Source: an uncultured beta proteobacterium
Lineage (GTDB): Bacteria; Pseudomonadota; Gammaproteobacteria; Burkholderiales; SG8-39
DNA length: 27,695 nucleotides
Reading direction: 5' to 3'
Assembly (NCBI GenBank): GCA_902826155.1
Contig: CADEDU010000077.1
Location: forward strand, 1 to 27,695
In this document: piece after piece, positions 1,545 through 19,082 of the stretch
Numbering within the stretch: the stretch's first letter is position 1
Layout: each line of letters opens with the position of its first letter
Notes under the pieces: model-generated
Told to the model about the DNA's origin: nothing
Seen by the model: the letters and a program-made list of their open reading frames with translations, nothing else
Databases searched by the model: none
Program-made: the position numbers and the translations under genes

Positions 1545-1551
1545 CGCTCGG

Positions 1552-2385: not shown

Positions 2386-2400
2386 AGCCCGTTCCTCTTT

Positions 2401-2439
2401 GTGCGTTCGAGTTGTGCGTTCGAGTTGTGCGTTCGAGTT
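2401..2439. repeat. Three perfect tandem copies of a 13-bp unit between pstA and pstB
   Basis: The unit GTGCGTTCGAGTT occurs three times without a mismatch at 2401-2413, 2414-2426 and 2427-2439. The array nearly fills the pstA-pstB gap: it touches the last base of the pstA stop codon and stops just before the pstB ribosome-binding site. Copy number could vary by slippage. Any effect on pstB translation or on mRNA processing is inference. Confidence 0.95.
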
Positions 2440-3341: not shown

Positions 3342-4309
3342 TTGTGACCCTCGCTGCGATTGGAGTAGGTCATGATCGCCGAGCCCACCACGTTTACGAT
3401 CAGCGTGATCGCCAGCAGCACCAGCGCGGCGTACATCAGCACCGGAATCTCTTTCGGGCCCGCCTCGGGGAAGTTGAGTGCGAGCAGCGCGGCGAGCGTG
3501 TTGGCTGGCGAGAACAGCGACAGGCTGATCTGATTGGCGTTGCCCACCAGCATCGCGAGCGCCATCGTCTCGCCCAGGGCGCGTCCGAAGCCGAGCACCA
3601 GCGCACCGAAGATGCCGTTGCGCGCTGCGGGCAGCAGCACTTTCAGGATCGCCTCCCAGCGCGTCGCGCCCATGCCGTAGGCCGCTTCCTTCACTTTGTA
3701 CGGCACCAGGCGCAATGCATCCTGCGACACCGCGGCGACCGTGGGCAGGATCATGATCGCGAGCACCAGCGCAGCGGGCAGCAGCCCGGGGCCGCTCAGC
3801 GAGGTGCCGAAGAATGGAATGGCACCGAACGTCTCGTGCAGCCAGTCGGCCAGCGGTCGAATCGCGGGAACGACGACGAAGATGCCCCACAGACCGTAGA
3901 CCACGCTGGGGATCGCCGCGAGCAGCTCGACGATCGTGCGGAACACCTGCGCCAGTTGCGCCGGCAGGAAGTCCTGCGTGAGGAAGATCGCCATCACCAC
4001 GCCGAACACGCCGGCGATCAGCAGTGCCAGCAGCGAGCTGTACAGCGTGCCCCAGATCGCGGGCAGGATGCCGAACTTGCCTTCCTTGACGTCCCAGGTG
4101 CTGGAGGTGAGGAACTCCAGGCCGTGCTCACCGATGCCCGGGACGGCCTTGCCGCCGATCTCCCACAGGATCAGCGCAAGCAGGATGAGGATCAACCAGG
4201 CGCCGCCAACCGCCAACCCGCGGAAGGCGCGATCGAAGGTGTAGTCGAACGGCGACGGTGGCGCCGAGGCCGACGTAGCCGACGGGGCGTGCTCGAACAG
4301 CGGCTTCAC
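3338..4309 (-). CDS. pstC: Phosphate ABC transporter permease PstC
   Basis: This inner-membrane permease subunit has 323 residues. A short polar N-terminus is followed by a first membrane helix ([18 protein letters not shown]) and about five more. The EAA loop is [20 protein letters not shown], followed by the conserved [11 protein letters not shown]. It starts at a GTG at 4309, 13 bases after the pstS stop, with only a weak ribosome-binding site, so coupling to pstS translation is likely. Its stop overlaps the pstA start. Confidence 0.96.
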
Positions 4310-4322
4310 GAGGTGCGCCGTG

Positions 4323-5378
4323 TCAGTTGATGTTGGCCGCGGCCTTGCGCACTTCCGCGATCACGTTCGCGGGGAGCGGCAGGTAGCCCATCTTCTCGCT
4401 CATCTTCTGCCCTTCGTTCAGGCAGTAGTCGATCATCTTGCGAACTGCGGCGGCCTTCTTCGGATCGTCGTACTTCTTGTAGAACATCATCCAGGTATAG
4501 CTGGCGATCGGATAGGCTCCCTCGCCTTCCGGATCGGGCAGCCAGGCGCGCATGTCGGCGGGTAGTTTGGCGTTGGACAGCGTCGCCATCCCGCCTTCGC
4601 CGCCGGCACCCGTATATTTGCCGGCCTTGTTCTGCAGCAGTGCGTGATCGACCTTGGCCAGTTTGGCGAAGCCGTACTCGATGTAACCGATCGCGCCCTT
4701 GGTCTGCTTGACGGTCGCGGTGACGCCGTCGTTCTTCGGCGAGGCGACGATCTTGTCGCTGCTGGGCCAGTTCACGGTGTTGCCCGCGCCCGGTCCTTTC
4801 TTCCATTCATCGCTGATCGCGCTCAAATGCTGCGTGAAGACGAACGTGGTGCCGCTCGAATCGGCGCGCCGCACGACCGTGATCGGCAGATCAGGCAGCT
4901 TCGCATTCGGATTCGCAGCGGCGATCTTCGGGTCGTTCCACTTGGCGATCTTGCCGAGGAAAATCTGTGGATAAACATCGCGTGGCAGGCGCAGGTCCTT
5001 CACGCCCGGCAGGTTGTAGGACAGCACGATCTCGCCCGCGGTCATCGGCAGCAGTTGCACGCCTTGCGGGATCTTGGCGATCTGCTCGTCGGTCATCGCC
5101 GAATCGCTGCCGGCGAAGTCGACGGTCTTGTTGATAAAGTCCTGAATGCCCGCGCCGCTGCCCTTGCCCTGGTAGTCGACCGTGATGCCGCCCGAGGACT
5201 TGCTGAAGTCCTTGAACCACGCCGAGTAGATCGGGAACGGAAAGGTCGCGCCCGAGCCGATCAGGCGCAGCTTGTCTTGCGCTGCAACCGGGAGCGACAG
5301 CGCGGCACCCAGCAGCAGAAAACCGGAAACGCGGGCGCGCGGGCGCAGCCAGGCGCTGAACAATGCGGGGCGATTCAC
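4323..5378 (-). CDS. pstS: First phosphate-binding protein PstS, head of the pst operon
   Basis: This is a periplasmic phosphate receptor of 351 residues delivering phosphate to PstCA. It has a signal peptide (VSGFLLLGAALSLPVAAQ, cleavage near AAQ/DK). Phosphate-loop motifs are IGSGATFPFPIYSAWF, GKGSGAGIQDF, DFAGSDSAMTDEQI and RRADSSGTTF, and the C-terminal GYLPLP segment typical of the family is present. The start is a GTG at 5378 with AGAGAGGAG 7 bases upstream. The open frame extends to 5870, but that part covers the promoter region and lacks homology. The gene is first in the operon and is preceded by Pho-box-like repeats at 5457-5485, as expected for a PhoB-controlled pst operon. Confidence 0.96.
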   Translation of the reverse strand: MNRPALFSAWLRPRARVSGFLLLGAALSLPVAAQDKLRLIGSGATFPFPIYSAWFKDFSKSSGGITVDYQGKGSGAGIQDFINKTVDFAGSDSAMTDEQIAKIPQGVQLLPMTAGEIVLSYNLPGVKDLRLPRDVYPQIFLGKIAKWNDPKIAAANPNAKLPDLPITVVRRADSSGTTFVFTQHLSAISDEWKKGPGAGNTVNWPSSDKIVASPKNDGVTATVKQTKGAIGYIEYGFAKLAKVDHALLQNKAGKYTGAGGEGGMATLSNAKLPADMRAWLPDPEGEGAYPIASYTWMMFYKKYDDPKKAAAVRKMIDYCLNEGQKMSEKMGYLPLPANVIAEVRKAAANIN

Positions 5379-5443
5379 CTTCGGACTCCTCTCTTTGTGC
5401 GCGGCCGCGTTCGGTCGGATCGCGGGGCTTGGGACGGCGAAGG

Positions 5444-5632
5444 CTAGGAGGGCCACATTACGGTTTGATGACCGCTCTGTGTACGTGGCGTGGCCGATTC
5501 GAGGCACGCGATCGCACGATGCTCGGCCAGGAGCTCCCGTGCCTGCCACGCGTTGAAAACGCCAGCGAGGTCGAGGTAGTGCGCGCTGTCGGCGAGAAAA
5601 GCGATGCGTATCGCGTCCGGTTCGTGGTGCAT
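5444..5632 (-). CDS. Possible 62-residue small protein or gene remnant upstream of pstS
   Basis: An ATG at 5632 on the minus strand has CGAGGAA 6 bases upstream and opens 62 codons. The protein begins MHHEPDAIRIAFLADSAHYL and ends in a low-information tail. The opening resembles the start of GNAT acetyltransferases (IRIAFLAD type), but only that start is present, so this may be a decayed acetyltransferase fragment. Its last codons overlap the putative pstS Pho box, so either the ORF or the box placement may be wrong. Transcribed from upstream it would be a leader ORF for pstS. Confidence 0.3.
   Translation of the reverse strand: MHHEPDAIRIAFLADSAHYLDLAGVFNAWQARELLAEHRAIACLESATPRTQSGHQTVMWPS
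5457..5485 (-). promoter_or_regulatory. Putative Pho box for pstS
   Basis: On the minus strand, CGGTCAT (5474-5468) and CCGTAAT (5463-5457) are exactly 11 bp apart, the period of PhoB direct repeats (consensus CTGTCAT). They match 6/7 and 5/7. A weaker unit CGTACAC (5485-5479) lies another 11 bp upstream. The site is about 80-105 bp before the pstS start. A weak -10-like TAGCCT follows after 10 bp. Confidence 0.55.
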
Positions 5633-5740
5633 GCAGAGTTCCTCGCGTGGGTGGGCGGGGTGCAGCGGCGGGGTGCAGCGGCGGGCGCACCCGATGGCAG
5701 CAATGCTGATCGCCGCAGATTGCGCCGCGATGAACTGCAC

Positions 5741-5758
5741 GAGTCACGGGCCTGTCAT
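5741..5758 (+). promoter_or_regulatory. Putative Pho box for phoX
   Basis: GAGTCAC (5741-5747) and CTGTCAT (5752-5758) form an 11-bp-period direct repeat; the second is a perfect match to the PhoB half-site. A -10-like GAGAAT starts 10 bp downstream (5769-5774). The phoX ATG is at 5813. This is the arrangement in which PhoB replaces a -35 element. Confidence 0.6.
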
Positions 5759-5812
5759 CGGGTCTTCGGAGAATCTGCCTTTTCAACCGGGTCGATTTAC
5801 GGAGCTCTCGCC

Positions 5813-7735
5813 ATGCATGACGCATCAGAACGCGGGCTCGGCCCGCACGAGGTCGCAATCGGCAACGCACTCGAGTCGCTGCTCAACGAACCGGTGTCTC
5901 GCCGACATGTCCTGCGCGCCGGCCTGGCTGGCATGGTGGGATTAATTCCGCTGGGATGCGCGTTGCCGTCTGCAACGGCCGGTCGTCAGCTCGGGTTCAC
6001 CTCGGTTCCGGTTTCGTGGGACGACAGGCTCACCGTGCCGCCGGGTTATCGCGCCGATGTGATTTATGCATGGGGCGATGCAACCGGTGTCGCCGGCCAG
6101 CCGATGCCGGCGTTCCAGTGGAACGCGGGCAATAGCGCCGCCGATCAGGCGCTGCAGGCCGGCATGCATCACGACGCGATCGAGTACTTCGCGCTCCCAC
6201 ACGGGTCGAATTCGAGCAGCAGCGCGCTGCTGGCGATCAATCACGAGTACGTCGACGACGGGCTATTGCATCGTGACGGCATGGCAAGCTGGACCGCCGA
6301 GAAGGTCGCCAAGGCGCAGCACGCGCACGGCGTGTCGATCATCGAGATCACGCGCCGTGGTGATCGATGGGAGGTGGTGCGTCCGTCCCGCTACGCCAGG
6401 CGGATCACCGCGCGCACGCCGATGACGATCTCCGGTCCGGCTGCCGGCCACGTGCTGTTGCGCACCGCCGCCGATCCAGCCGGTCGCGAGGTGCTCGGCA
6501 CCATCAACAACTGTGCCGGCGGGCGCACGCCTTGGGGCACGTACCTCACCTGCGAAGAGAACTTCAACATGTACTTCGCCAACAGCGGTTCGATTCCGGC
6601 CGATCAGCGCCGCTATGGAATCGGTGCGCGCACCGGGTACCGCTGGAACGAATTCGATGCGCGCTTCGACGCCGCGGCACAGCCGAACGAACCCAATCGC
6701 TTCGGCTGGGTGGTCGAAATCGATCCGTACGATCCGCAATCGGTGCCGATCAAACGCACCGCGCTGGGCCGCATCAAACACGAAGGTGCGATGGTGACCG
6801 TTGCCGGGGATGGTCGCATCGTGGTCTACACCGGCGATGACGAGCGCTTCGAGTATCTCTACAAGTTCGTCTCGGCCAAACCGTGGAATCCGCAGGACCG
6901 CGCCGCCAATCGCAACCTGCTCGACGAGGGCACGCTCTACGCGGCGCGCTTCAACGAACACGGCCAGGGTGCCTGGATCGAACTTGCGTTCGGCAAGAAC
7001 GGCCTCACCAGCGCGAACGGCTTCAACAACCAGGCCGAAGTGCTGGTACGTACGCGTCAGGCCGCCGATGCCGTGGGGGCGACCAAGATGGACCGCCCGG
7101 AGTGGGTCGCGGTGCATCCGGTGACGCAGGACGTCTATCTGACGCTCACCAACAACAGCGCGCGCGGCACTGACAAGCGGCCCGGTACTGATCCGGCCAA
7201 TCCGCGCGCCCGCAACTACTACGGTCACATCGTGCGCTGGCGTGAGCAGGGCGGCGATGCTGCCGCGGTCAAGTTCCGCTGGGAGCATTTCGTGCTCGCC
7301 GGGGACACGCAGGGCGCCGATGCCGACGCGCGCGGCACGGTGAAAGGAGACTCGTTCGGAAGCCCCGACGGTTTGTGGTTCGACGCACGCGGCACGCTGT
7401 GGATTCAGACCGACGTTGCAGCAGCCGATCTGCGCCGACCGGAGTACGCGCGCATCGGCAACAACCAGATGCTGGCCGCCGACGTCATCACCGGCGAGAT
7501 CCGGCGCTTCCTGGTCGGCCCGAAGGATTGCGAGATCACCGGTGCAACGATGAGTCCGGACGGTCGTACCTTGTTCATCAACGTGCAGCATCCGGGCGAG
7601 GTGCCGGGTTCGCCGCGCAACGATCCGGCCAATCCTCGCGCCGGCAGCAACTGGCCCGACTTCCGTCCGGACGGGCGGCCGCGCTCGGCGACGGTGATGA
7701 TCCAGCGCATTGACGGCGCTCCGGTCGGCACCTGA
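5813..7735 (+). CDS. phoX: PhoX-family alkaline phosphatase, Tat-exported
   Basis: This periplasmic or extracytoplasmic phosphatase of 640 residues releases phosphate from organic phosphomonoesters. PhoX enzymes are monomeric and use iron and calcium. A twin-arginine signal is visible: SRRHVL at residues 29-34, then a hydrophobic core. The family signature NNCAGGRTPWGTYLTCEEN (about 232-250) contains the cysteine that ligates iron in characterised PhoX, and INHEYV, RIKHEGAMV and SPDGLWFD blocks follow. The ATG at 5813 has GGAG 8 bases upstream; a longer open frame to 5363 crosses the promoter region and is not used. It is divergent from pstS and has its own Pho-box-like repeat. A cysteine in the signal region (LIPLGC) is a poor lipobox, so lipoprotein status is doubtful. 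Confidence 0.94.
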   Translation: MHDASERGLGPHEVAIGNALESLLNEPVSRRHVLRAGLAGMVGLIPLGCALPSATAGRQLGFTSVPVSWDDRLTVPPGYRADVIYAWGDATGVAGQPMPAFQWNAGNSAADQALQAGMHHDAIEYFALPHGSNSSSSALLAINHEYVDDGLLHRDGMASWTAEKVAKAQHAHGVSIIEITRRGDRWEVVRPSRYARRITARTPMTISGPAAGHVLLRTAADPAGREVLGTINNCAGGRTPWGTYLTCEENFNMYFANSGSIPADQRRYGIGARTGYRWNEFDARFDAAAQPNEPNRFGWVVEIDPYDPQSVPIKRTALGRIKHEGAMVTVAGDGRIVVYTGDDERFEYLYKFVSAKPWNPQDRAANRNLLDEGTLYAARFNEHGQGAWIELAFGKNGLTSANGFNNQAEVLVRTRQAADAVGATKMDRPEWVAVHPVTQDVYLTLTNNSARGTDKRPGTDPANPRARNYYGHIVRWREQGGDAAAVKFRWEHFVLAGDTQGADADARGTVKGDSFGSPDGLWFDARGTLWIQTDVAAADLRRPEYARIGNNQMLAADVITGEIRRFLVGPKDCEITGATMSPDGRTLFINVQHPGEVPGSPRNDPANPRAGSNWPDFRPDGRPRSATVMIQRIDGAPVGT

Positions 7736-7783
7736 TAGAGCGTCGTGCCCGCACGCTGCTCGAACAGAGCTCGTGCAGGTGCG

Positions 7784-7812
7784 ATGTCACGCAGTTAGCG
7801 CGCCAGTGTCAC
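7784..7812 (+). promoter_or_regulatory. Weak candidate Pho box upstream of plcP
   Basis: ATGTCAC (7784-7790) and GTGTCAC (7806-7812) each match 6/7 of the PhoB half-site CTGTCAC and are 22 bp apart, exactly two 11-bp periods. The middle unit is not conserved. The site lies 60-90 bp before the plcP start. The gene could equally be read through from phoX. Confidence 0.35.
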
Positions 7813-7872
7813 GGCGCGGCAACGTTGGTCGCGTTGAATCGCATCCCAGCGAAACGGGAAACGACGACCTAC

Positions 7873-8724
7873 GTGAACGCGCCGATCTCTCATTCGATTC
7901 TCGCTGCGAGCTACGACGACGAACCGACACCGGTCCAGCGCTATCGCACGATCTGGATTTCCGACGTGCACCTGGGCACGGTCGATTGCAAGTCGGAGTA
8001 CCTGCTCGATTTCCTGCGTCACCACGAGTGCGAGACGCTCTATCTGGTGGGCGACATCGTCGACGGCTGGCAGCTGAAGAAGACCTGGTACTGGCCGCAA
8101 TCGCACAACGACGTGGTGCAGAAGATCCTGCGCAAGGCGCGCAAGGGCACGCGCGTCATCTACATCCCGGGCAATCACGACGAGGTGCTGCGTCCGTTCC
8201 TGGGCATTGCGCTCGGCGGCATCTCGGTGCAGCACGAGGCGATCCATCAACTCGTCGACGGGCGCCGGTTGCTGGTGACCCATGGCGATCTGTTCGACGG
8301 CGTCGTGCAGCACGCGAAATGGATCGCGCGCCTGGGCGACGAGCTGTACATCCAGTGCCTCAAGCTCAATCGCTGGGTCAATCACGCACGCGTGCGCCTG
8401 GGCGCGCCGTACTGGTCGGTGTCGCAGTATCTGAAGCACCGGGTCAAGAACGCGGTCGGTTACATCACCGACTTTCGCAAGGTGCTCGCGCAGGAAGCAC
8501 AGCGCCGCGGTGTCGACGGCGTGGTGTGCGGGCACATCCACAAAGCGGAGGTGGAGGACGTGGACGGAATCCTGTATTGCAACTGCGGCGACTGGGTCGA
8601 GAGCCTGACCGCGCTCACCGAGGATCACAGCGGCGCGCTCAACGTCGTGCACTGGCATCAGCGCACGCCGATCAAGAGCGCCAAGCGTGCTCGCCGCAAA
8701 CTCGCACTGCCGGTGGCGCCATGA
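7873..8724 (+). CDS. plcP: PlcP-like calcineurin-type phospholipid phosphodiesterase (LpxH-related fold)
   Basis: This is a metallophosphoesterase of about 283 residues. Metal-binding motifs are all present: SDVHLG (D31, H33), VGDIVDGW (D61), PGNHDE (100-104), THGD (H137, D139) and CGHIHKAE near the C-terminus. The phrases YWPQSHNDVVQKILRK and INxGDWVES-like CNCGDWVES match the family of Sinorhizobium PlcP, which cleaves phosphatidylglycerol/choline-type lipids to diacylglycerol in phosphate starvation. Automated annotation often calls this family UDP-2,3-diacylglucosamine diphosphatase. There is no signal peptide, so it acts in the cytoplasm or on the inner leaflet. Position between phoX and a glycosyltransferase supports the PlcP role. 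The GTG at 7873 is preferred; a TTG at 7825 adds 16 residues and cannot be excluded. The stop overlaps the next start as ATGA. Confidence 0.85.
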   Translation: MNAPISHSILAASYDDEPTPVQRYRTIWISDVHLGTVDCKSEYLLDFLRHHECETLYLVGDIVDGWQLKKTWYWPQSHNDVVQKILRKARKGTRVIYIPGNHDEVLRPFLGIALGGISVQHEAIHQLVDGRRLLVTHGDLFDGVVQHAKWIARLGDELYIQCLKLNRWVNHARVRLGAPYWSVSQYLKHRVKNAVGYITDFRKVLAQEAQRRGVDGVVCGHIHKAEVEDVDGILYCNCGDWVESLTALTEDHSGALNVVHWHQRTPIKSAKRARRKLALPVAP

Positions 8725-9770
8725 GAATCCTGATCGTCTCGGACGCCTGGTCGCCCCAGGTGAATGGCGTGGTGCGTACGCTCACGACGACCAAGCGCGA
8801 ACTCGAGCGCATGGGCCACACGGTCGGGGTGATCTCGCCGCTGGAGTTCCGCACCATCGCCTGTCCTACCTACCCCGAGATTCGACTGGCAGTCAACGCG
8901 GGCTCGAAAGTCGGTTATCGGATCGAGGCGTTCGCGCCCGATGCGCTGCATATCGCCACGGAGGGGCCGCTCGGCTTCGCCGCCCGCCGCTACGCGCTGC
9001 GCGCCGGTCTGGCGTTCACGACGTCGTTCCACACCAAGTTTCCCGAATACGTGGAGGCGCGCTGCGGCTTGCCGGCGCGCTTCACCTACAAAGCGATGCG
9101 TTGGTTCCACAGACCGGCGCGTTCGATCATGGCGGCAACGCCCGCGATCAAGCGCGAGCTTGAAAGCCACGGCTTCGAGCGCGTGAAGTTGTGGGGGCGC
9201 GGCGTCGACATGGACGTGTTCAAGCCCGGCGAACGCTCGTTCCTGCGTGCGGCGCGCCCCTTGTTCATGTACGTCGGACGCGTCGCCGTGGAGAAAAACA
9301 TCGAGGCGTTCCTCGATCTGGACCTGCCGGGTTCGAAATGGGTGGTCGGCGACGGTCCGCAGCGCGAGGCACTGCAGCGGCGGTACACCAACGTGCACTT
9401 CGCCGGCTTTCAGCAAGGCGAGGCGCTGGCACGGCACTACGCCGCGGCCGACGCTTGCGTGTTTCCGAGCCGCACCGACACCTTCGGGCTGGTCATGCTC
9501 GAGGCAATGGCGTGCGGTACGCCGGTTGCCGCGTACCCGGTGCCCGGGCCGATCGACGTGATCGGCACGAGCGGGGCAGGGGTGCTCGACGAAGATCTGC
9601 GCCGCGCATGCCTGGCGGCGCTCGAGATCGATCGCGGCGTCGCCTTGGGACGGGCGCGTGAATTCTCCTGGCGGTCGGCGGCGATGCAGTTCCTCGGCAA
9701 CCTCACGCCGAGCCGACCGAGTGCGCAGTTCGCAGGCGTGCCGGTGCGTGCTTCTGCGACCCATCAGTAA
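8721..9770 (+). CDS. agt: GT4-family glycosyltransferase, likely diacylglycerol glycosyltransferase (Agt-like)
   Basis: This GT-B fold, retaining glycosyltransferase has 349 residues. The N-terminal half opens with MRILIVSDAWSPQVNGVVRT, the acceptor-side start typical of MgtA/SqdX-like enzymes. The C-terminal donor half has FMYVGRVAVEKNIEAFL and SRTDTFGLVMLEAMACGTPVAAYPV. In the usual E-x7-E motif the first Glu is Asp here, as in that subfamily. It overlaps plcP by four bases (ATGA), so the two proteins are probably made together. In alpha-proteobacteria and Pseudomonas, the PlcP/Agt pair makes diacylglycerol and then glycosylates it to phosphorus-free glycolipids. The sugar donor cannot be told from sequence. 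The alternative is a mannosyltransferase of lipid or polysaccharide metabolism. Confidence 0.85.
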   Translation: MRILIVSDAWSPQVNGVVRTLTTTKRELERMGHTVGVISPLEFRTIACPTYPEIRLAVNAGSKVGYRIEAFAPDALHIATEGPLGFAARRYALRAGLAFTTSFHTKFPEYVEARCGLPARFTYKAMRWFHRPARSIMAATPAIKRELESHGFERVKLWGRGVDMDVFKPGERSFLRAARPLFMYVGRVAVEKNIEAFLDLDLPGSKWVVGDGPQREALQRRYTNVHFAGFQQGEALARHYAAADACVFPSRTDTFGLVMLEAMACGTPVAAYPVPGPIDVIGTSGAGVLDEDLRRACLAALEIDRGVALGRAREFSWRSAAMQFLGNLTPSRPSAQFAGVPVRASATHQ

Positions 9771-9786
9771 TGCGAGCCTTGTAGTT

Positions 9787-9802
9787 TGCGATGCGCATCG
9801 CA
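9787..9802. repeat. Perfect 16-bp palindrome between convergent genes
   Basis: TGCGATGCGCATCGCA is its own reverse complement. It sits in the 43-bp gap between the end of agt and the end of the minus-strand TPR gene. It has no loop and no T-tract, so it is a poor intrinsic terminator; it could be a protein-binding site or a weak bidirectional stop. Confidence 0.6.
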
Positions 9803-9813
9803 CCCCGGCCGCT

Positions 9814-11037
9814 CTATCGCGCGAGCAGCACCTGCACCGTCTGCGTCAGCGCCTGCTCGTAGATCGCGTCGGCGGTGATGCGCGGCGAGCTTGGCGTTCC
9901 CGGGCGCTCATCCACGGATATCTGCCTGGCGAACTGGCTGCGCACGACTGACGCGGCGATCAATTGATCGCCGTCCGCTCCGGCGGTCGCGATGCCGATC
10001 AGTGTTCCGGCGCCATCGAACACTGGTCCGCCACGTGGGCCTGCCGGCATGTTCACGCCCAGGCGAACGCTTCCGTCGGCGGTTGGCGAGCCGAGGAATC
10101 CCAGGTAAAGCATCGGCCAGGCCGGGCCACCGCGTTCGTCGGGTGCGAATTCCACGCTGACAGCCGGGCTGCCGGGAAACGCATCGCGAGCCACCGCACG
10201 CAACGCAGCGGTCTGCATTGGTGTGGCCAGCTTCAACAACGCAAGCGCGCTCGATGCTTCGCCTGGCTCGAGGGTCGCCTGCTGCACCCGGCCCAGTCCG
10301 TCGCGCACCCAGATCATCGTTGCGCCATCGAGCGCGCTGCGCACGGTGAGCACACGGCGGCCGGCCTCGACGAGAACGCCGGAGGCCACCGCGTGGACTT
10401 GATGCGGAAGCGTTTCGGACGCCGCGCTATACGGGGCAAAACGGGCGGGGGCGTGAAGCATCGAGGTCGGTGCGACCGGTAAGGCGGCTTTGAGCAAACC
10501 TTGCGTTTCGCCGAGCAGTGGATCGTCCGGCAACCGCGTACGCGCGCGATCGAGCAGTCGTTGTGCCGCTTGAACTTGCCCGCCGAGGTGAAGCAGCCAT
10601 GCGTAGAGTCCGCTACCGGCAGCGACGTCGGGATGCGCGCCCGCGGTGTGTGCGGCGAACGTCAACGCGCGGCGGTATTGGCCCGACTGCATGTACGCAC
10701 GAATCAGGCCGAGCTCAGCATCCGCGGCGTGCTTGACGAACCCGGCTTGCTCGAACAACGCAGCGGCTTGTTCGATTTCGCCGCGGCTCAGCGCAGCCTC
10801 GCCGTCGCGCAACATCCGGGCTCGATCCTCTGCGACGTGGGCCGCACCCGATACCGACGGCTCGGCCGGTGCTCGCTGCATGAGCCGGCGCAACCGTTCT
10901 TCCGATGAGCTCGATGGTGCAACCTGCGCCGCGCGATCCTGCGCGAGCACGGGAAGCACGAGCGCAGGCAGCGCGAGCGCGTACGCGCAGGCGAGGAGGA
11001 TCGCGCGTGTCGCTCGCGCGCGACCTGCACGTATCAC
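9814..11037 (-). CDS. TPR protein with a degenerate trypsin-like (pseudoprotease) domain
   Basis: This exported protein has 407 residues. A signal peptide (residues about 1-33, ending VLAQ) is followed by a TPR-like helical part (70-185; GEAALSRGEIEQAAALFEQAG, then LIRAYMQSGQYRRALTFA). From about 210 on it has the layout of a DegP/HtrA-type trypsin fold. All three catalytic positions appear lost: the VLTAAH-like segment reads VLTVRS (229-234), the DLALLK-like segment reads ALALLK (Ala264), and GNSGGP reads GPRGGP (Arg335). It is therefore probably a binding or scaffold protein. The GTG start at 11037 overlaps the 5'-nucleotidase stop as GTGA, implying coupled translation and perhaps joint function. 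No PDZ domain is visible. Confidence 0.8.
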   Translation of the reverse strand: MIRAGRARATRAILLACAYALALPALVLPVLAQDRAAQVAPSSSSEERLRRLMQRAPAEPSVSGAAHVAEDRARMLRDGEAALSRGEIEQAAALFEQAGFVKHAADAELGLIRAYMQSGQYRRALTFAAHTAGAHPDVAAGSGLYAWLLHLGGQVQAAQRLLDRARTRLPDDPLLGETQGLLKAALPVAPTSMLHAPARFAPYSAASETLPHQVHAVASGVLVEAGRRVLTVRSALDGATMIWVRDGLGRVQQATLEPGEASSALALLKLATPMQTAALRAVARDAFPGSPAVSVEFAPDERGGPAWPMLYLGFLGSPTADGSVRLGVNMPAGPRGGPVFDGAGTLIGIATAGADGDQLIAASVVRSQFARQISVDERPGTPSSPRITADAIYEQALTQTVQVLLAR

Positions 11038-13130: not shown

Positions 13131-13205
13131 CGAATCCTCCCGAGTTGTCGATGCGATCGGAGACTAACGAGCGACCATTACGATGAAATGAACCCGGGGT
13201 CCGAT

Positions 13206-13239
13206 TGATCCGGCGATCGAATGAATCCGGCGATCGGTT
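13206..13239. repeat. Tandem 17-bp direct repeat
   Basis: ATCCGGCGATCG occurs at 13208-13219 and again at 13225-13236, 17 bp apart, with near-identical flanks. It lies in the 131-bp gap between the 5'-nucleotidase start and the end of the small exported protein gene. Its function is unknown. Confidence 0.8.
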
Positions 13240-13261
13240 CGCCCGGGATTCACGACTTGCG

Positions 13262-13687
13262 CTAATTGAATAGTTCGAGCCGGTCGCCGCGCAGGTGGCG
13301 CGAGACGCCGTCGCGCTTGGGTTTGCCGTCGGGGCCGAAGTGATGGAGGTGCTCGCCGCGGCGGCGGAAGCGCGAGCAGGTGTTGTACTCGGGGCGCGTG
13401 TATTCGAAGCAGACGCGATCGTGGTGCGCGATCCAGCGTCCGCCATAGTCGCGTGTCATCCCGAGATAGCGCACCCGGCCGACGATCTTGCCGCCGGGCG
13501 CGTAGAACTCGGCCCACTGCGTGCCGATCAGCGTGGCACCGGCGAACGTCGCGCTCAGCTCTTCGCCCGACAGATACGGACCGGCATCATCGGCCAGCGT
13601 CGGCAGCGCTATTGCAGCGGCGACCAGTGCCGAACCGATCACGCGCAATCGGACCGCAGAAAAACGAGGCAGATGACATGACGGCAC
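13262..13687 (-). CDS. Small exported protein of unknown function
   Basis: From a GTG at 13687 this encodes 141 residues. Residues about 10-30 (LRVIGSALVAAAIALPTLA) form a signal peptide with cleavage before DDAGPYLSG. The mature part is about 110 residues and is rich in aromatic and charged residues. It alternates GxxxxG turns and beta-like strands (GTQWAEFYAPGGKIVGRVRY, then GGRWIAHHDRVCFEY), with two cysteines (VCF and NTCSRF) that could form a disulfide. The layout reminds me of DUF995-type small beta-barrel proteins, but I cannot confirm this. No clear ribosome-binding site marks the start, and the open frame extends to 13783 via TTG, overlapping the ugp promoter. Confidence 0.65.
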   Translation of the reverse strand: MPSCHLPRFSAVRLRVIGSALVAAAIALPTLADDAGPYLSGEELSATFAGATLIGTQWAEFYAPGGKIVGRVRYLGMTRDYGGRWIAHHDRVCFEYTRPEYNTCSRFRRRGEHLHHFGPDGKPKRDGVSRHLRGDRLELFN

Positions 13688-13783
13688 GCTGTCGCGATTG
13701 CAAGTAGCAGATGGCACCGGCGCGATGTTCGAACGCTTCGATGACTTGCTGATTACACGTAGCGTGATCGCAGCGAACAACAA

Positions 13784-13812
13784 CCGTCATCTTCGCGTCA
13801 AGCAGTCGTCAT
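13784..13812 (+). promoter_or_regulatory. Three-unit Pho box upstream of the ugp-type operon
   Basis: CCGTCAT (13784-13790), GCGTCAA (13795-13801) and TCGTCAT (13806-13812) are three PhoB-like half-sites at exact 11-bp spacing; each keeps the GTCA core. A -10-like ACTTAA begins 7 bp further on (13820-13825). The ugpC start is at 13899. This is the clearest Pho-box candidate in the window. Confidence 0.7.
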
Positions 13813-13898
13813 GGTGCGCACTTAAGGTCGCGGTCCATTCGGATTGCGAATCGTGGCGTGGATCGCGGATCGCGGATTTTGGATTGCGAGAGGCGGCG

Positions 13899-15062
13899 AT
13901 GGCAGGCATCACTTTGCGCGGCATCACCAAGGCGTTCGGCAGCACGCAGGTTCTGAAAGGGGTCGACCTGGCGATTGCCGACGGCGAGTTCATCTCGCTG
14001 GTGGGTCCGTCGGGCTGCGGCAAATCGACCCTGCTGCGGATCATCGCGGGGCTGGAGCAGCAGACATCCGGGTCGGTGCAGATCGCCGGCGCGAGCGTCG
14101 ACCGCGTTGCACCGAGCGAGCGCAATCTCGCGATGGTATTCCAGTCGTATGCGCTCTACCCGCATCTGAGCGTTTTCGACAACATCGCCGTGCCGCTGCG
14201 CATGCGTCGGCTCAACGTCTGGCAGCGGCTCGCGTTGGTCCGTCGCGCGTGGCCCGAGGCGCAACGCGTCGAGCAGCGTATTCGCGGCGAGGTCGAGCGT
14301 GTTGCGCAAATGCTGGACATCGTGCCGTTGCTCGGGCGCAAGCCGGCGCAGCTTTCCGGTGGACAGCGCCAACGCGTGGCGGTAGGGCGGGCGATCGTGC
14401 GCGAACCGAGCGCGTTCCTGCTCGATGAGCCGCTTTCCAATCTCGACGCGAAGCTGCGTGTGCATATGCGGGCGGAACTGGCGCAGCTACATCGACGACT
14501 GGGCACGACGTTCGTCTACGTGACGCACGATCAGGCCGAGGCGATGACGATGTCCGACCGGATCGTCGTGATGATGGACGGCGAGCTCGTGCAGGTGGGC
14601 TCTCCCGACGAGGTCTACGACAACCCGAACGATCTTCGCGTGGCCGAGTTCATCGGCAGCCCCAAGCTGAATACGCTGCCGGGTCAGGTGGTGTCCGGTG
14701 GCTTCGGGTGCGGTGGCGTGTACGTGCCGTTGGTGATCGAAGCCGCCGCTGGCGTCCGCGGCACCCTTGGCATACGACCCGAGGCACTTCGCATCGGCGC
14801 GGACGGGGATGTCGTGTTGAGAGGTTGCACCGTGACCCACATCGAGAATCTCGGTGCCGAACTGTACGTGCACTGCGAAGTGCCGGACGCCGCCGCTGTA
14901 ATCGCGCGCGTTGCGCATGTTGGCGGGGCCGGTGTGCGGCTGGGCATGACGCTCGATCTCGCGTTCGACACGCGGGATGTGCGCCTGTTCGATTCGCGTG
15001 GCCGACGCCTGGCCGCAACCGTGATCGGCACGGTGCGGTCTCCCGAGGCGATCGCGGCGTAA
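13899..15062 (+). CDS. ugpC: UgpC/MalK-type ABC importer ATPase
   Basis: This cytoplasmic ATPase of 387 residues belongs to a carbohydrate/glycerol-3-phosphate-class importer. Walker A is GPSGCGKST (36-44), the Q-loop is MVFQSYALYPHLSVFDN, the signature is LSGGQRQRVAVGRA, Walker B is FLLDEPLSNLDAKLR and the H-loop is VTHDQAEAMTMSDR. A C-terminal OB-type regulatory domain (about 245-387, with LGIRPEALRI) identifies the MalK/UgpC class. Between the Q-loop and the signature there is a longer helical stretch than in E. coli MalK (RRLNVWQRLALVRRAWPEAQ). The ATG at 13899 has GAGAGG just upstream. The gene heads an operon with permeases, binding protein and phosphodiesterase, under a Pho-box-like site, which favours a phosphorylated substrate over a plain sugar. 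Confidence 0.88.
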   Translation: MAGITLRGITKAFGSTQVLKGVDLAIADGEFISLVGPSGCGKSTLLRIIAGLEQQTSGSVQIAGASVDRVAPSERNLAMVFQSYALYPHLSVFDNIAVPLRMRRLNVWQRLALVRRAWPEAQRVEQRIRGEVERVAQMLDIVPLLGRKPAQLSGGQRQRVAVGRAIVREPSAFLLDEPLSNLDAKLRVHMRAELAQLHRRLGTTFVYVTHDQAEAMTMSDRIVVMMDGELVQVGSPDEVYDNPNDLRVAEFIGSPKLNTLPGQVVSGGFGCGGVYVPLVIEAAAGVRGTLGIRPEALRIGADGDVVLRGCTVTHIENLGAELYVHCEVPDAAAVIARVAHVGGAGVRLGMTLDLAFDTRDVRLFDSRGRRLAATVIGTVRSPEAIAA

Positions 15063-15066
15063 CCCG

Positions 15067-16023
15067 ATGAGTGCGACCGTGGATGCGACAGTTGCCCGCC
15101 CGCTTCCGGCGCTGGAGCGGCATCGCGCCTCGGGCGCGGCACATCCGCGGGCAGCGTCGAGCGGTCTGACCGGCGTTCTGCTCACCACGCCGGCGCTGCT
15201 GTTGATGCTGGCGTTGATCGTGGGTCCGGTGATTGCCGTGTTGCTGATGGCATTCACCGACTACCAACTCGGGGCGGCGAGCTGGACGTTCGTAGGCGTG
15301 GACAACTTCGTGCATCTGGCGCGCGAACCGGTGTTCTGGCGCTCGCTCGGCAACACGCTGCTCTACGCCTGCATCGTCGTGCCCGGTGCGGTCGCGCTCG
15401 GGTTGGGGGTCGCGCTACTGATCGAGTCGGGGAGCGGCCTGAAGGGCTTCTACCGCGCCGTGTACTTCGTGCCGGTGATGGCAACGCTGATCGCGATGGC
15501 GATTGCCTGGGAGTTCATGCTTCACCCGCAGTTCGGTCTGATCAATCAACTGCTCAAACTCATCGGTATGCCGCCGCACAACTGGCTGGCCGAGTCGTCC
15601 ACCGCCTTGCCGGTGCTCGCGGTGATCGGTATCTGGCAGCAGTTCGGATTCAACATGGTGCTGTTCCTCGCTGGCCTGGTCTCGATACCAAAGCATCTGT
15701 ACGAAGCGGCGCAGCTCGATGGTGCCGGCTCGGCCTGGGAGCGGTTCCGGCTGGTGACCTGGCCGATGCTCGGGCCGGTGACGCTGTTCGTGGTGGTCAT
15801 CTCCGGCATCCGGTCGTTCCAGGTGTTCGACACGGTGCACGTCCTTACCAAGGGTGGGCCGAGCAAGTCCTCAGAAGTGTTGCTCTACTCGATGTATGCC
15901 GAGGGCTTCGAATTCTTTCGCTCGGGGCTGGCCGCGGCAATCGCAGTGGTGTTCCTGGCGCTCGTGCTCGTACTCACGCTGATCAAGCGGCGTGTGATGG
16001 AGAAGCGGGTGCACTACGCATGA
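15067..16023 (+). CDS. UgpA-like ABC importer permease
   Basis: This inner-membrane permease of 318 residues belongs to the MalF/UgpA class. A polar N-terminus is followed by membrane helices from about residue 35 (GVLLTTPALLLMLALIVGP). The EAA loop that contacts the ATPase reads EAAQLDGAGSAWERFRLVTWP. It starts 4 bases after the ATPase stop and its own stop overlaps the next permease start as ATGA, so the operon is tightly coupled. Substrate specificity cannot be read from the permease; the glycerol-3-phosphate or glycerophosphodiester assignment comes from context. Confidence 0.87.
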   Translation: MSATVDATVARPLPALERHRASGAAHPRAASSGLTGVLLTTPALLLMLALIVGPVIAVLLMAFTDYQLGAASWTFVGVDNFVHLAREPVFWRSLGNTLLYACIVVPGAVALGLGVALLIESGSGLKGFYRAVYFVPVMATLIAMAIAWEFMLHPQFGLINQLLKLIGMPPHNWLAESSTALPVLAVIGIWQQFGFNMVLFLAGLVSIPKHLYEAAQLDGAGSAWERFRLVTWPMLGPVTLFVVVISGIRSFQVFDTVHVLTKGGPSKSSEVLLYSMYAEGFEFFRSGLAAAIAVVFLALVLVLTLIKRRVMEKRVHYA

Positions 16024-16856
16024 GCGTCGCCGCGCGATCGCCGCTGTGGAATGCGGTCCGGCACGCGCTCCTTCTGACCGGGGCGCTGCTGGTGCTGTTG
16101 CCGTTCCTGTGGATGGTGGTGACTTCGTTCAAGCCGCCGAGCGAGATATTCATCGACGAGATTCGCCTGTGGCCCGAGCGGCTGCATGCGATCGAGAACT
16201 ACACCCGCGCCTTCCAGCGTGAGCCGCTGTGGTTGTACCTGCTCAATGGCGTGATCGTCACCGCGAGCATCTTCGTGCTGCAGGTGCTCATCGCACTGCC
16301 TGCGGCCTACGCGCTGGCGAAGCTGCGCTACCGTGGGCGTGATGCGGTATTCGCGATGGTGCTGTTGTGCATCCTGATTCCTCCGCAGGCGACCGCGATC
16401 CCGCTGTTCCTGCTGCTGCATCAACTCGGTATGCTCGATACCTACGCGGCACTGATCGTGCCGTTCACGATCTCGGCGTTCGGCATCTTCCTGATGCGGC
16501 AGTTCTTCATGACTGTCCCCGATGATCTGATCGACGCGGCCCGCATGGACGGCATCGGTGAGTTCGGCATCGTGTGGCGCGTGATGCTGCCCACCGCGGT
16601 GCCTGCACTCACGGCCTTCGGGATCTTCTCCGTCGTCGCGCATTGGAACGACTACTTCTGGCCGCTCATCGTTCTCTCTTCGGAGCACCTGTATACGCCG
16701 CCGCTGGGCGTCGCCGCATTCCGCAACGAGGAGGCCGGGACCGACTACGGTCCACTCATGGCAGCCGGGGTGATCATCATCGCGCCGCTGATCCTGGCGT
16801 TCCTCCTCGCGCAGCGCCGCTTCATCGAAGGCATCGCGTTCACCGGCATGAAGTGA
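16020..16856 (+). CDS. UgpE-like ABC importer permease
   Basis: This second permease subunit has 278 residues and is of the MalG/UgpE class. It has about six membrane segments, beginning with LLLTGALLVLLPFLWMVVTSF, which ends in the usual SFKPPSEIF. The EAA loop reads DAARMDGIGEFGIVWRVMLP. The C-terminus ends at RRFIEGIAFTGMK, a typical ending for this family (GLTAGAVKG-like). It overlaps the preceding permease by 4 bases and is followed by a 70-base gap before the binding protein. Confidence 0.87.
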   Translation: MSVAARSPLWNAVRHALLLTGALLVLLPFLWMVVTSFKPPSEIFIDEIRLWPERLHAIENYTRAFQREPLWLYLLNGVIVTASIFVLQVLIALPAAYALAKLRYRGRDAVFAMVLLCILIPPQATAIPLFLLLHQLGMLDTYAALIVPFTISAFGIFLMRQFFMTVPDDLIDAARMDGIGEFGIVWRVMLPTAVPALTAFGIFSVVAHWNDYFWPLIVLSSEHLYTPPLGVAAFRNEEAGTDYGPLMAAGVIIIAPLILAFLLAQRRFIEGIAFTGMK

Positions 16857-16926
16857 GCACATCGATTCGCCCGCATCCGCTCTGCAATACGCGTTGTTCC
16901 AACACACTGCAAAAGGAGTCCGTCAG

Positions 16927-18198
16927 ATGAAGGTGCCCGCCGTCAAATCAGTGCTCGTGGCCGTATCGCTCGCGTTCGTAGCTGGCCAGGCCGGTGCGCA
17001 GACCGAGATCGTGGTGCAGTATCCCTACGGCGAGTTGTTCAACACGACGCACAAGCGCATCGCCGAGGCCTACGCCAAGACCAATCCGGGTATCAAGGTG
17101 TCGTTCCGTGCGCCGTACGATTCCTACGAGGAGGGCACGCAGAAGGTGCTGCGTGAGGCGATCACCAAGCAGGTGCCCGACATCACCTTCCAGGGGCTGA
17201 ACCGGATCCGCATCCTGGTCGATCGGGGTATCGCGCAGCCGATCGACAGCTACATCAAATCCGACAAGGGTCTGGAGGCCGATGGTTTCCATCAGGCGAT
17301 GTTCGACATCGGCACGCAAGACGGCAAGGTGTATGCGCTGCCGTTCGCGATCTCGCTGCCGGTGGTGTACTTCAATCTCGATCTGATCAAGCGAGCCGGC
17401 GGCGACACGGCGAACCTGCCCGCCACCTGGGACGGCATCATCGCGCTGGCCAGAAAGGTCGCAGCGCTCGGTGCCGACGTAAATGGCGTGACCTACGCGT
17501 GGGATATCACCGGCAATTGGTTGTTCCAGGCGCCGGTGTTCAGCCGCGGCGGCAGCATGCTGAGTGCCGACGAAAGAAGGGTGGCCTTCGACGGGCCGGA
17601 AGGCCAGACGGCGTTCCGCGATTTCGCCCGCCTGGTGACCGAAGCGAAGATGCCCAACGTGAGCCAGGCCGATGCGCGCGCCGCGTTCGCCGCCGGCAAG
17701 ACGGGCATCCATTTCACCTCCACCTCGGATCTTGCCAAGATCACCGAAATGATCGGCGGCAAATTCGCGCTCAAGACCGGCAGCTTCCCCGACGTCGACG
17801 CCGGCAAGGGCCGGCTTCCCGCGGGTGGCAACGTCGGCATGATCCTCACGGCCGATGCGAAGCGCCGTGACGCAGCTTGGCAGGTGCTCAAGTTCTGGCA
17901 TGGCCCGCAGGCGGCCGCGATCATGGCCGAGACCACCGGATACATGCCGCCCAACAAGAAGGCGAACGACGTCTACTTGAAGGATTTCTACGTGCGCAAT
18001 CCGAACCACTACACCGCAGTCAAGCAGTTGCCGCTGCTCACGAAGTGGTACGCCTTTCCGGGGGAGAACGGTCTGAAGATCACCGATGTCATCAAGGACC
18101 ACATGAACTCGATCGTCACCGGCAAGCGCGCCGCCGAGCCTGATCGCGTGCTGGCCGAGATGGCCGCCGACGTGCAGAAGCTGCTGCCGAAGAAGTAG
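16927..18198 (+). CDS. Periplasmic binding protein of the Ugp-type importer
   Basis: This is a family-1 solute-binding protein of 423 residues. A signal peptide (1-23, ending AGAQ) leads into TEIVVQYPYGELFNTTHKRI. The middle segment GKVYALPFAISLPVVYFNLD is typical of the UgpB/MalE fold, and the C-terminal part has KFWHGPQAAAIMAETTGYMP. The ATG at 16927 follows AAAGGAG at good distance. The distant start of the open frame at 16894 has no ribosome-binding site. The gene lies between the permeases and a cytoplasmic phosphodiesterase, so the ligand is probably glycerol-3-phosphate or a glycerophosphodiester, though sequence alone would also allow a sugar or oligosaccharide. Confidence 0.85.
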   Translation: MKVPAVKSVLVAVSLAFVAGQAGAQTEIVVQYPYGELFNTTHKRIAEAYAKTNPGIKVSFRAPYDSYEEGTQKVLREAITKQVPDITFQGLNRIRILVDRGIAQPIDSYIKSDKGLEADGFHQAMFDIGTQDGKVYALPFAISLPVVYFNLDLIKRAGGDTANLPATWDGIIALARKVAALGADVNGVTYAWDITGNWLFQAPVFSRGGSMLSADERRVAFDGPEGQTAFRDFARLVTEAKMPNVSQADARAAFAAGKTGIHFTSTSDLAKITEMIGGKFALKTGSFPDVDAGKGRLPAGGNVGMILTADAKRRDAAWQVLKFWHGPQAAAIMAETTGYMPPNKKANDVYLKDFYVRNPNHYTAVKQLPLLTKWYAFPGENGLKITDVIKDHMNSIVTGKRAAEPDRVLAEMAADVQKLLPKK

Positions 18199-18221
18199 TC
18201 GGGCGCATTTCGGGATCCGCC

Positions 18222-19082
18222 ATGAAATTCCTCCACATCACCGACACCCACCTCACCGTCGACGACGAGGTGCTGTTCGGCACCCGGCCGGGCGAACGCC
18301 TGGCGCAGTGCCTGGCGCATGCCGCCAGGCACCACCATGACGCCGAGCGTTGCGTAATCACCGGCGACCTGACGCACTGGGGCGAGGAAGGCGCGTACCG
18401 CGAGCTGCGCCGCCGCCTCGAGGGCTTTCCGGTTGCAGTGCGACTGTTGCTGGGCAATCACGACAAGCGCGAGCCGTTCCGCGCAGTGTTTCCGCAAGTC
18501 GCGATGGACGCGCACGGCTTCGTCCAGTCGGCCGAGGCGACCAGCGCCGGCAGATTCATTTACCTCGACAGTACGCAGCCGCTCACCCATGCCGGGCACT
18601 ACTGCGAGCTTCGCCAGCAGTGGCTGCGCGCGCAACTCGAGGCAACGAGCGAACCGTGCTACCTGTTCATGCATCATCACCCGGCCTCGATCGGGGTGTA
18701 TGCATTCGATCTGATCGGCCAGACCGACAGCGCGGCGCTGCTGGCGATTCTGCGGCAGTACCGCGACCGGATCCGTCACATCTTCTTCGGCCACTGTCAT
18801 CTGCCGCTGTCGGGCACGATCGCGGGCGTTCCATTCGCATCGCTTCGTGGCACCAACCATCAGAGCTGGCAGGACTTCACCGGTCATCCCAAGCTCAAGG
18901 CGGCCAAGCTGGCACCCGCCTACAACGTGGTGCTGATCGAGCACGGCAACTGCATCGTGCACACGATCGAATACGACTACGACGGTCCGATCGCCGAGTT
19001 CGGAACGGCGTTCGAGGACTGGTCGCGTGCAGCGATGGAACCGCTCAACACTTTGGAGACGCGACCCTCAATTCTCGCTTGA
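18222..19082 (+). CDS. GpdQ/CpdA-like class III phosphodiesterase
   Basis: This cytoplasmic calcineurin-type metallophosphoesterase has 286 residues. Binuclear-metal motifs are complete: HITDTHL (D8, H10), ITGDLTHWG (D49), LLGNHDKR (N79, H80), FMHHHPASIG and FFGHCHLPLSG. This ladder is that of GpdQ (glycerophosphodiesterase) and CpdA (cAMP phosphodiesterase). It is the last gene of the ugp-type operon, 23 bases after the binding protein. The simplest reading is that imported glycerophosphodiesters are cleaved here to glycerol-3-phosphate and an alcohol. A cyclic-nucleotide substrate is the main alternative. No signal peptide is present. Confidence 0.85.
   Translation: MKFLHITDTHLTVDDEVLFGTRPGERLAQCLAHAARHHHDAERCVITGDLTHWGEEGAYRELRRRLEGFPVAVRLLLGNHDKREPFRAVFPQVAMDAHGFVQSAEATSAGRFIYLDSTQPLTHAGHYCELRQQWLRAQLEATSEPCYLFMHHHPASIGVYAFDLIGQTDSAALLAILRQYRDRIRHIFFGHCHLPLSGTIAGVPFASLRGTNHQSWQDFTGHPKLKAAKLAPAYNVVLIEHGNCIVHTIEYDYDGPIAEFGTAFEDWSRAAMEPLNTLETRPSILA

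What the first reader, a model, noticed from the sequence alone, without database searches (positions are those of the whole stretch)
4323..19082. A compact phosphorus-starvation island combining uptake, scavenging and membrane lipid remodelling
One stretch links pst, phoX, a PlcP-like lipase, an Agt-like glycosyltransferase, a 5'-nucleotidase, a Ugp-type importer and a GpdQ-like phosphodiesterase. Known for families: Pst takes up phosphate, PhoX and 5'-nucleotidase release it, and PlcP/Agt replace phospholipids with glycolipids. Inferred: PhoB co-controls the set. Having the remodelling pair inside the scavenging cluster in a probable beta-proteobacterium is the most notable feature.
Basis: partly seen in the sequence, partly recalled or inferred. 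Interest (0 to 1): 0.8.

Follow-up and report, generated by a model that had tools for sequence, protein, structure and literature searches.

The report
Mosaic phosphate-starvation gene cluster
A stretch of bacterial DNA groups genes for catching phosphate, freeing it from organic molecules and swapping phosphorus-rich membrane lipids for sugar lipids; it is a well-assembled variant of something already known, with one transporter unit that seems to have come from another class of bacteria.

Summary
Window 402-19082 carries pstSCAB plus a second pstS, phoX, an overlapping plcP-agt pair, a 5'-nucleotidase coupled to a TPR/trypsin-like gene, and a five-gene ABC importer-phosphodiesterase operon. 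PhoB co-control is supported in silico: a Pho-box matrix from other genomes puts its four best hits of the 27.7 kb window in the four expected promoters, and plcP upstream regions of 80 relatives are rich in Pho boxes. The claimed main novelty, plcP-agt inside a phosphate cluster of a betaproteobacterium, is not special: agt adjoins plcP in 76 of 80 loci, and 18 of 80 have ppk, ppx, pst or phoX within about 10 kb. Unusual is the importer operon: it misses the Ugp cut-offs, its binding protein nests among Alphaproteobacteria, it occurs on plasmids, and by names and tag order it resembles a phosphate-lack-induced Phaeobacter operon (PMC10132767). It was not found near any of 40 phoX loci read. 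Host class is not settled: phoX and plcP are beta-like, importer and OpgD alpha-like. A new variant of a known kind, modest interest. No expression or lipid data exist for this organism.

The parts
402..1532 (-). second PstS phosphate-binding protein, downstream of pstB
   Evidence: TIGR00975 341.7 bits, cut-off 205; start chosen by eye
1552..2385 (-). pstB ATPase
   Evidence: TIGR00972 376 bits, cut-off 343.2
2439..3341 (-). pstA permease
   Evidence: TIGR00974 269.1 bits, cut-off 193.45
3338..4309 (-). pstC permease
   Evidence: TIGR02138 312 bits, cut-off 196.45
4323..5378 (-). pstS, first gene of the pst operon
   Evidence: TIGR00975 396.6 bits, cut-off 205
5457..5474 (-). Pho-box-like site upstream of pstS
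   Evidence: third best of the window with the relatives' matrix, 11.48; 11 of 14 consensus positions
5741..5758 (+). Pho-box-like site upstream of phoX
   Evidence: best of the window, 15.94; 11 of 14 consensus positions
5813..7735 (+). phoX alkaline phosphatase
   Evidence: PF05787 592.6 bits; frame checked
7806..7823 (+). Pho-box-like site upstream of plcP
   Evidence: second best of the window, 11.68
7879..8724 (+). plcP-like metallophosphoesterase (predicted intracellular phospholipase C)
   Evidence: PF12850, PF00149; not LpxH; relatives in 80 loci
8721..9770 (+). agt-like GT4 glycosyltransferase overlapping the plcP stop
   Evidence: PF13692, PF13439; downstream of plcP in 75 and fused to it in 1 of 80 loci
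9814..11037 (-). TPR plus trypsin-like protein, start overlaps the 5'-nucleotidase stop
   Evidence: PF14559, PF13365
11034..13130 (-). 5'-nucleotidase family protein
   Evidence: PF02872 100.7 bits, PF00149; specific NCBIfam cut-offs not reached
13262..13693 (-). small ORF, signal-peptide-like start by eye, no family; start guessed
   Evidence: translation; no Pfam match
13784..13812 (+). three Pho-box-like half sites at 11-base spacing upstream of the importer operon
   Evidence: fourth and eighth best hits, 11.07 and 9.10; sequence
13899..15062 (+). importer ATPase (UgpC/MalK-like)
   Evidence: NF008653 404.9 bits, cut-off 432
15067..16023 (+). importer permease 1 (UgpA-like)
   Evidence: NF007852 138.2 bits, cut-off 335
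16020..16856 (+). importer permease 2 (UgpE-like)
   Evidence: NF008210 135.8 bits, cut-off 297
16930..18198 (+). importer substrate-binding protein, grouping with alphaproteobacterial ones
   Evidence: UgpB 60.7 bits, cut-off 411
18222..19082 (+). phosphodiesterase of the metallophosphatase superfamily, no leader seen by eye
   Evidence: PF00149; PDB matches 2dxl and 2hy1; SpdA model 194.1 bits, cut-off 400

Best explanation
This is a PhoB-controlled phosphorus-starvation cluster built from at least four transcription units. When phosphate falls, PhoB would bind Pho boxes upstream of pstS, phoX, plcP and the importer operon. Pst takes up phosphate; PhoX and the 5'-nucleotidase free it outside the cytoplasm; PlcP cuts membrane phospholipids to diacylglycerol, which Agt glycosylates to glycolipids; the five-gene ABC unit imports an intact phosphodiester, most likely a glycerophosphodiester, and its phosphodiesterase splits it inside the cell. 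Gene families and Pho-box placement are shown by sequence; PhoB binding, protein location, the import substrate and glycolipid formation are inferred.
For: Families. The four best Pho-box matrix hits lie in the four expected promoters, on the strand of the gene; 0 of 3000 column-permuted matrices did this and 4 placed three of four. Upstream of plcP in 80 relatives a site of at least 10/14 is present in 64 (expected 10.05) and of at least 11/14 in 38 (expected 1.45); upstream of phoX in 40 loci at least 11/14 in 14 (expected 0.7). PlcP is fused to Agt in one relative and to an MGDG-synthase-type enzyme in another, which points to consecutive steps. An operon with matching names and tag order is raised by phosphate lack in Phaeobacter sp. 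MED193 (PMC10132767, section 7 with Table 1 read).
Against: The number of Pho-box-like sites in the window is not above a Markov expectation (4 against 2.6 at score 11 or more; 1 against 1.85 at 12 or more; 2 against 1.8 at 11/14); only their position is unusual. The matrix comes from consensus-selected sites, and I drew the promoter regions. Of 14 alphaproteobacterial copies of the importer operon, 2 have a site of at least 11 upstream; some have a LuxR-type response regulator or a LysR gene as neighbour, so the operon need not be a Pho member. In the MED193 phoB mutant the binding protein still has a value of 3.27. The substrate is unknown.
Confidence: 0.78

Rival explanations
1. Only pst, phoX and plcP-agt form a Pho cluster; the importer-phosphodiesterase operon is a neighbour acquired for carbon or nucleotide use and is not part of the phosphate response.
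For: Alphaproteobacterial grouping of the binding protein; LuxR-type, LysR, DeoR or PhnF regulators beside it elsewhere; in 14 alphaproteobacterial regions of 14-19 kb no phoX or plcP match, and only weak pstB matches of 33% or less.
Against: Three half-site Pho array directly upstream here; the Phaeobacter operon of matching order is raised by phosphate lack; the unit carries a phosphodiesterase.
Confidence: 0.2
2. The importer is a true glycerol-3-phosphate Ugp transporter.
For: The best and third-best solved binding proteins are named as glycerol-3-phosphate binders; the best NCBIfam models for all four subunits are UgpB, UgpC, UgpA and UgpE.
Against: All four subunits miss the cut-offs, the ATPase narrowly; the GLRxGN stretch of the UgpBs is replaced by AFPGENGLKITD, present in 8 of 9 relatives read, with D for E in the ninth. 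That the arginine holds the phosphate of glycerol 3-phosphate is recalled, not from a call.
Confidence: 0.12
3. The metallophosphoesterase beside agt is a lipid A enzyme (LpxH type), as many source records name it, and there is no lipid remodelling.
For: Source names of relatives; distant match to a solved LpxH-type enzyme.
Against: 43.5 bits against 134 for the LpxH model; pairing with a GT4 enzyme in 76 of 80 loci; Pho boxes upstream in relatives; fusions.
Confidence: 0.05
4. The co-location is chance, or joins two organisms in one assembled contig.
For: Beta-like phoX and plcP but alpha-like importer and OpgD (against 86, 87).
Against: GC is 0.59-0.68 and third-position GC 0.74-0.91 over the 22 genes, without a step between the halves; the TPR, TIR and transglutaminase-like genes deviate most in codon use. 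A 99% SBP and a 98% OpgD are listed in clusters whose longest contig has the same length, 25087, but that contig was not read and may not span the left half.
Confidence: 0.08

Closest known systems
PlcP-Agt lipid remodelling (Pelagibacter HTCC7211 plcP-agt, P. aeruginosa PA3219-PA3218; PlcP of Phaeobacter MED193)
   Same: metallophosphoesterase next to a glycosyltransferase, Pho box reported (PMC4796936 section 13 and passages read; PMC8528852 passages read)
   Different: here next to phoX and pst; relation to a characterised PlcP was not measured; lipids unknown
plcP-agt loci of other Burkholderiales (L001, L062, L070, L177, L199)
   Same: plcP-agt within about 10 kb of pst genes; L001, L070 and L199 also have ppk and ppx; L177 and L199 have phoX
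   Different: all five have a match to an OlsB-like acyltransferase, which the window stretch was not tested for; no match to the importer's binding protein, phosphodiesterase or the 5'-nucleotidase there
Phaeobacter sp. MED193_11288-11308
   Same: phosphodiesterase, sugar-type binding protein and ATPase in matching tag order, raised by phosphate lack (PMC10132767 Table 1)
   Different: sequences not compared; only three of the five expected proteins are in the table; class Alphaproteobacteria
UgpBAEC glycerol-3-phosphate importer
   Same: subunit make-up; among the nearest solved binding proteins
   Different: all four subunits under the curated cut-offs; own phosphodiesterase as last gene

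Membership tests
PstSCAB phosphate transporter | all four subunits over curated cut-offs in one gene run | tested here: met
PhoX | PF05787 domain over cut-off | tested here: met
   592.6 bits, cut-off 24
PlcP-Agt lipid remodelling | metallophosphoesterase that is not LpxH | tested here: met
PlcP-Agt lipid remodelling | adjacent GT4 glycosyltransferase | tested here: met
PlcP-Agt lipid remodelling | Pho box upstream | tested here: met
   in silico only: for the window (11.68, below the plcP median of 18.3 in relatives), for relatives
PlcP-Agt lipid remodelling | close sequence kinship to a characterised PlcP or Agt | not tested
   no characterised sequence was at hand
PlcP-Agt lipid remodelling | phospholipase C activity and glycolipid formation | not testable with these tools
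   needs biochemistry and lipid analysis
Ugp glycerol-3-phosphate importer | subunits over the Ugp model cut-offs | tested here: not met
   UgpB 60.7/411, UgpC 404.9/432; UgpA 138.2/335, UgpE 135.8/297
SpdA cyclic nucleotide phosphodiesterase | NF050112 cut-off | tested here: not met
   194.1 bits, cut-off 400
GpdQ/Rv0805 phosphodiesterase superfamily | metallophosphatase domain with the metal-binding motifs | tested here: met
   PF00149; alignment over HITDTH, GNHD, MHHHP and GHCH; that these bind metal and that 2dxl is GpdQ is recalled
5'-nucleotidase | metallophosphatase plus C-terminal 5'-nucleotidase domain | tested here: met
   specific models not reached
Pho regulon | PhoB-dependent induction by phosphate lack | not testable with these tools
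   Pho-box placement only

The most novel reading that the evidence does not exclude
The five-gene importer-phosphodiesterase operon is an unnamed, mobile phosphodiester import-and-cleave unit that moves between Alpha- and Betaproteobacteria and on conjugative plasmids, and that can fall under PhoB control where it lands. Here it has joined a lipid-remodelling cluster, so that the cell can both give up its own phospholipids and collect phosphodiesters of other cells.
Probability: 0.3. Interest if true: 0.6.

Novelty: new variant of a known kind. Interest (0 to 1): 0.4.

Why it matters
Two points go beyond annotation. First, Pho boxes upstream of plcP in most of 80 mainly betaproteobacterial loci suggest that phosphate-controlled glycolipid remodelling, shown in Alphaproteobacteria and Pseudomonas in the papers seen here, is widespread in Betaproteobacteria such as Burkholderia and Cupriavidus. 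Second, a conserved importer-phosphodiesterase operon of unknown substrate is marked as a phosphorus-scavenging candidate that can be assayed directly.

Tried and rejected
Rejected: a PlcP-Agt fusion in the window (686-aa ORF 7710-9770); its first half is the wrong frame of plcP. Rejected: tRNA-Ala at 14913-14985; it lies inside the ATPase gene and no Rfam family reaches its threshold in the window. Rejected: LpxH. Uninformative: PstS for host class and the plain count of Pho-box matches in the window. Not resolved: host class; no whole genome is held. Structure prediction and fold search were not used. The literature searches were in one open library; four papers were opened (PMC4796936: passages and section 13; PMC8528852: passages; PMC10132767: passages and section 7; PMC13086504: passages), the rest were seen as listings. 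I make no claim that these points are absent from print.
Full report
What is there. Gene calls rest on ORF lists, translations and profile matches. On the minus strand run pstS (4323-5378), pstC, pstA, pstB and a second pstS (402-1532). On the plus strand, divergent from pstS, run phoX (5813-7735), plcP (7879-8724) and agt (8721-9770), the last two overlapping by four bases. On the minus strand follow a TPR/trypsin-like gene (9814-11037) and a 5'-nucleotidase gene (11034-13130), also overlapping, and a small ORF with a signal-like start (about 13262-13693). On the plus strand come an ABC ATPase, two permeases, a binding protein and a phosphodiesterase (13899-19082), and then a TIR-domain gene (19321-20445). 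Start codons were chosen by eye.

Regulation. A plain consensus scan gave two sites of 11/14, both in the pstS-phoX gap, but the number in the window was as expected (2 against 1.8). In relatives the test is stronger. Upstream of plcP in 80 loci the best site reached at least 11/14 in 38 (expected 1.45) and at least 10/14 in 64 (expected 10.05); upstream of 40 phoX genes at least 11/14 in 14 (expected 0.7). Many of the 80 loci are close relatives (Burkholderia, Paraburkholderia, Cupriavidus), so they are not independent. A matrix of 62 distinct relative sites, none from the window, gave as the four best window hits the sites upstream of phoX (15.94), plcP (11.68), pstS (11.48) and the importer (11.07), each on the strand of its gene; the next two (10.66, 10.65) lie in coding sequence. 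The medians of the best sites in relatives are 18.3 for plcP and 13.2 for phoX, so the window's plcP site is a weak one. Promoter gaps hold 4.4% of positions; 0 of 3000 column-permuted matrices put all four best hits there and 4 put three there. The importer site extends to three half sites at 11-base spacing. Limits: the relatives' sites were selected by consensus, the gaps for one search were drawn, and the total number of hits is not raised.

How special is plcP-agt here. An agt match lies next to plcP in 76 of 80: 75 as a separate gene, 1 fused (L001). Of the other four, L077 has a separate and L079 a fused MGDG-synthase-type match, and L042 (contig ends near) and L065 have neither. Within about 10 kb, 18 of 80 have ppk, ppx, pst or phoX: L001, L003, L013, L014, L022, L026, L038, L040, L042, L046, L055, L058, L062, L064, L067, L070, L078 and L079. 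Some contigs are short, so this is a lower bound. From the other side, phoX is found at E of 1e-100 or better in 123 of 399 Burkholderiales genomes (only the first few candidates of each genome were scored). I fetched 40 places, the 39 best and that of G001, some on contigs of 5.5-10 kb. There plcP is near in 4 of 40: in L177 and L199 with 60-62% identity and with agt, in L162 with 45% and a weak agt match, in L169 with 46%. Pst genes are near in L162, L177 and L199 (in L199 pstS only). The importer and the 5'-nucleotidase are near in 0 of 40. So the cluster type recurs, and this window is the fullest version among those read.

The importer operon. The binding protein's named relatives among the 120 listed are Alphaproteobacteria at 71-79%, apart from one named only Proteobacteria. 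It was found in 16 of 385 alphaproteobacterial genomes at E of 1e-100 or better, 7 of them at 69-74%; in 6 of 399 Burkholderiales genomes at 1e-60, at most 47%; and in 0 of 369 genomes of the wider class at 1e-60 (where the tool warns that an empty answer alone shows nothing; searches show that the query can be found). In these searches only a few candidates per genome were scored, so misses are possible. A tree of 26 proteins puts the window's protein in a group of six with three named Alphaproteobacteria and two unnamed sequences (100/99), inside a group of eleven whose named members are all Alphaproteobacteria (95/99), away from the betaproteobacterial copies; several other branches are long or open. 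The gene order ATPase, permease, permease, binding protein, phosphodiesterase is kept in 6 of 7 plasmid regions read; the seventh has a methyltransferase gene before the metallophosphoesterase. In 13 of 14 alphaproteobacterial regions the phosphodiesterase was detected; in L127 it was not. On plasmids there are 103 records at 1e-60, 30 of them typed conjugative. In Phaeobacter sp. MED193 three proteins with matching names and tag order (11288 phosphodiesterase, 11293 binding protein, 11308 ATPase) have fold-change values of 3.55, 4.03 and 5.47 on phosphate lack. In the phoB mutant the first and third are not detected, while the second still has 3.27 at 0.01% abundance against 0.47% in the wild type (PMC10132767 Table 1). 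I did not compare sequences, so the match is an inference. Against general Pho membership: only 2 of 14 alphaproteobacterial copies have a site of 11 or more in the 300 bases upstream, and neighbours include LuxR-type, LysR, DeoR and PhnF regulators.

Substrate. The phosphodiesterase begins directly with its catalytic-type motif and shows no leader by eye, so it should be cytoplasmic; the substrate must then enter intact. Among the closest solved binding proteins are UgpBs, and the enzyme is nearest to 2dxl, named phosphohydrolase, and Rv0805 (that 2dxl is GpdQ is recalled). A glycerophosphodiester is therefore my choice; cyclic nucleotides or other diesters are not excluded.

Host. PhoX is 57-65% identical to the best 30 of 399 Burkholderiales genomes and at most 53% to those of 115 alphaproteobacterial genomes. 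OpgD is 75% to Methylocystis parvus in the large protein collection against 63% for the best full-length match in 120 Burkholderiales genomes (one partial match of 68%); the two samples differ in size. PstS is at most 44% in 100 Burkholderiales and 41% in 94 alphaproteobacterial genomes. A betaproteobacterium with an alpha-derived right part is the simplest reading, but it is not proven.

Verdict. Observation confirmed; interpretation partly supported; a new variant of a known kind.

Noticed in passing
L079:5313-7340: One open frame in an Oxalobacteraceae MAG carries a PlcP-like metallophosphoesterase and an MGDG-synthase plus GT28 part, beside phoX, a Ppx/GppA gene and an Acetyltransf_5 gene (OlsB-like is my recalled name).
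   Followed up: partly
L001:9968-11878: PlcP and Agt matches lie in one 636-codon open frame in a Burkholderiales MAG, near pst, ppx and ppk. An assembly error is not excluded.
   Followed up: partly
19321-20445: TIR-domain protein whose second half looks hydrophobic by eye, lowest GC of the genes (0.594) and deviant codon use; only weak matches to Thoeris and SAVED-TIR models.
   Followed up: partly
9814-13130: TPR/trypsin-like gene overlapping a 5'-nucleotidase gene; role unknown, and neither was found near the 40 phoX loci read.
   Followed up: partly
402-5378: Two pstS genes flank pstCAB; the best matches of the first are only 44% in 100 Burkholderiales and 41% in 94 alphaproteobacterial genomes.
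   Followed up: no
L095:4492-6695, L118:4916-5551: A LuxR-type response regulator lies beside the importer operon in Tistrella and in L118 (Pfam); in Tistrella a histidine kinase is annotated next to it.
   Followed up: no
L098, L099: The importer operon sits on IncP conjugative plasmids (Delftia, pAKD18) close to IS1071.
   Followed up: no
14913-14985: ARAGORN tRNA-Ala inside the ATPase gene, not supported by Rfam.
   Followed up: yes
L054, L073: Record titles Klebsiella pneumoniae and Asaia bogorensis for MAG contigs whose PlcP is 62% identical to the window's, as in Betaproteobacteria; the titles look doubtful.
   Followed up: no
PMC10132767 Table 1: A UshA 5'-nucleotidase is listed with UniProt number A3XC77, close to those of the importer proteins (A3XC79, A3XC83, A3XC84), although its locus tag is far away; it may be a neighbour there as in the window.
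   Followed up: no
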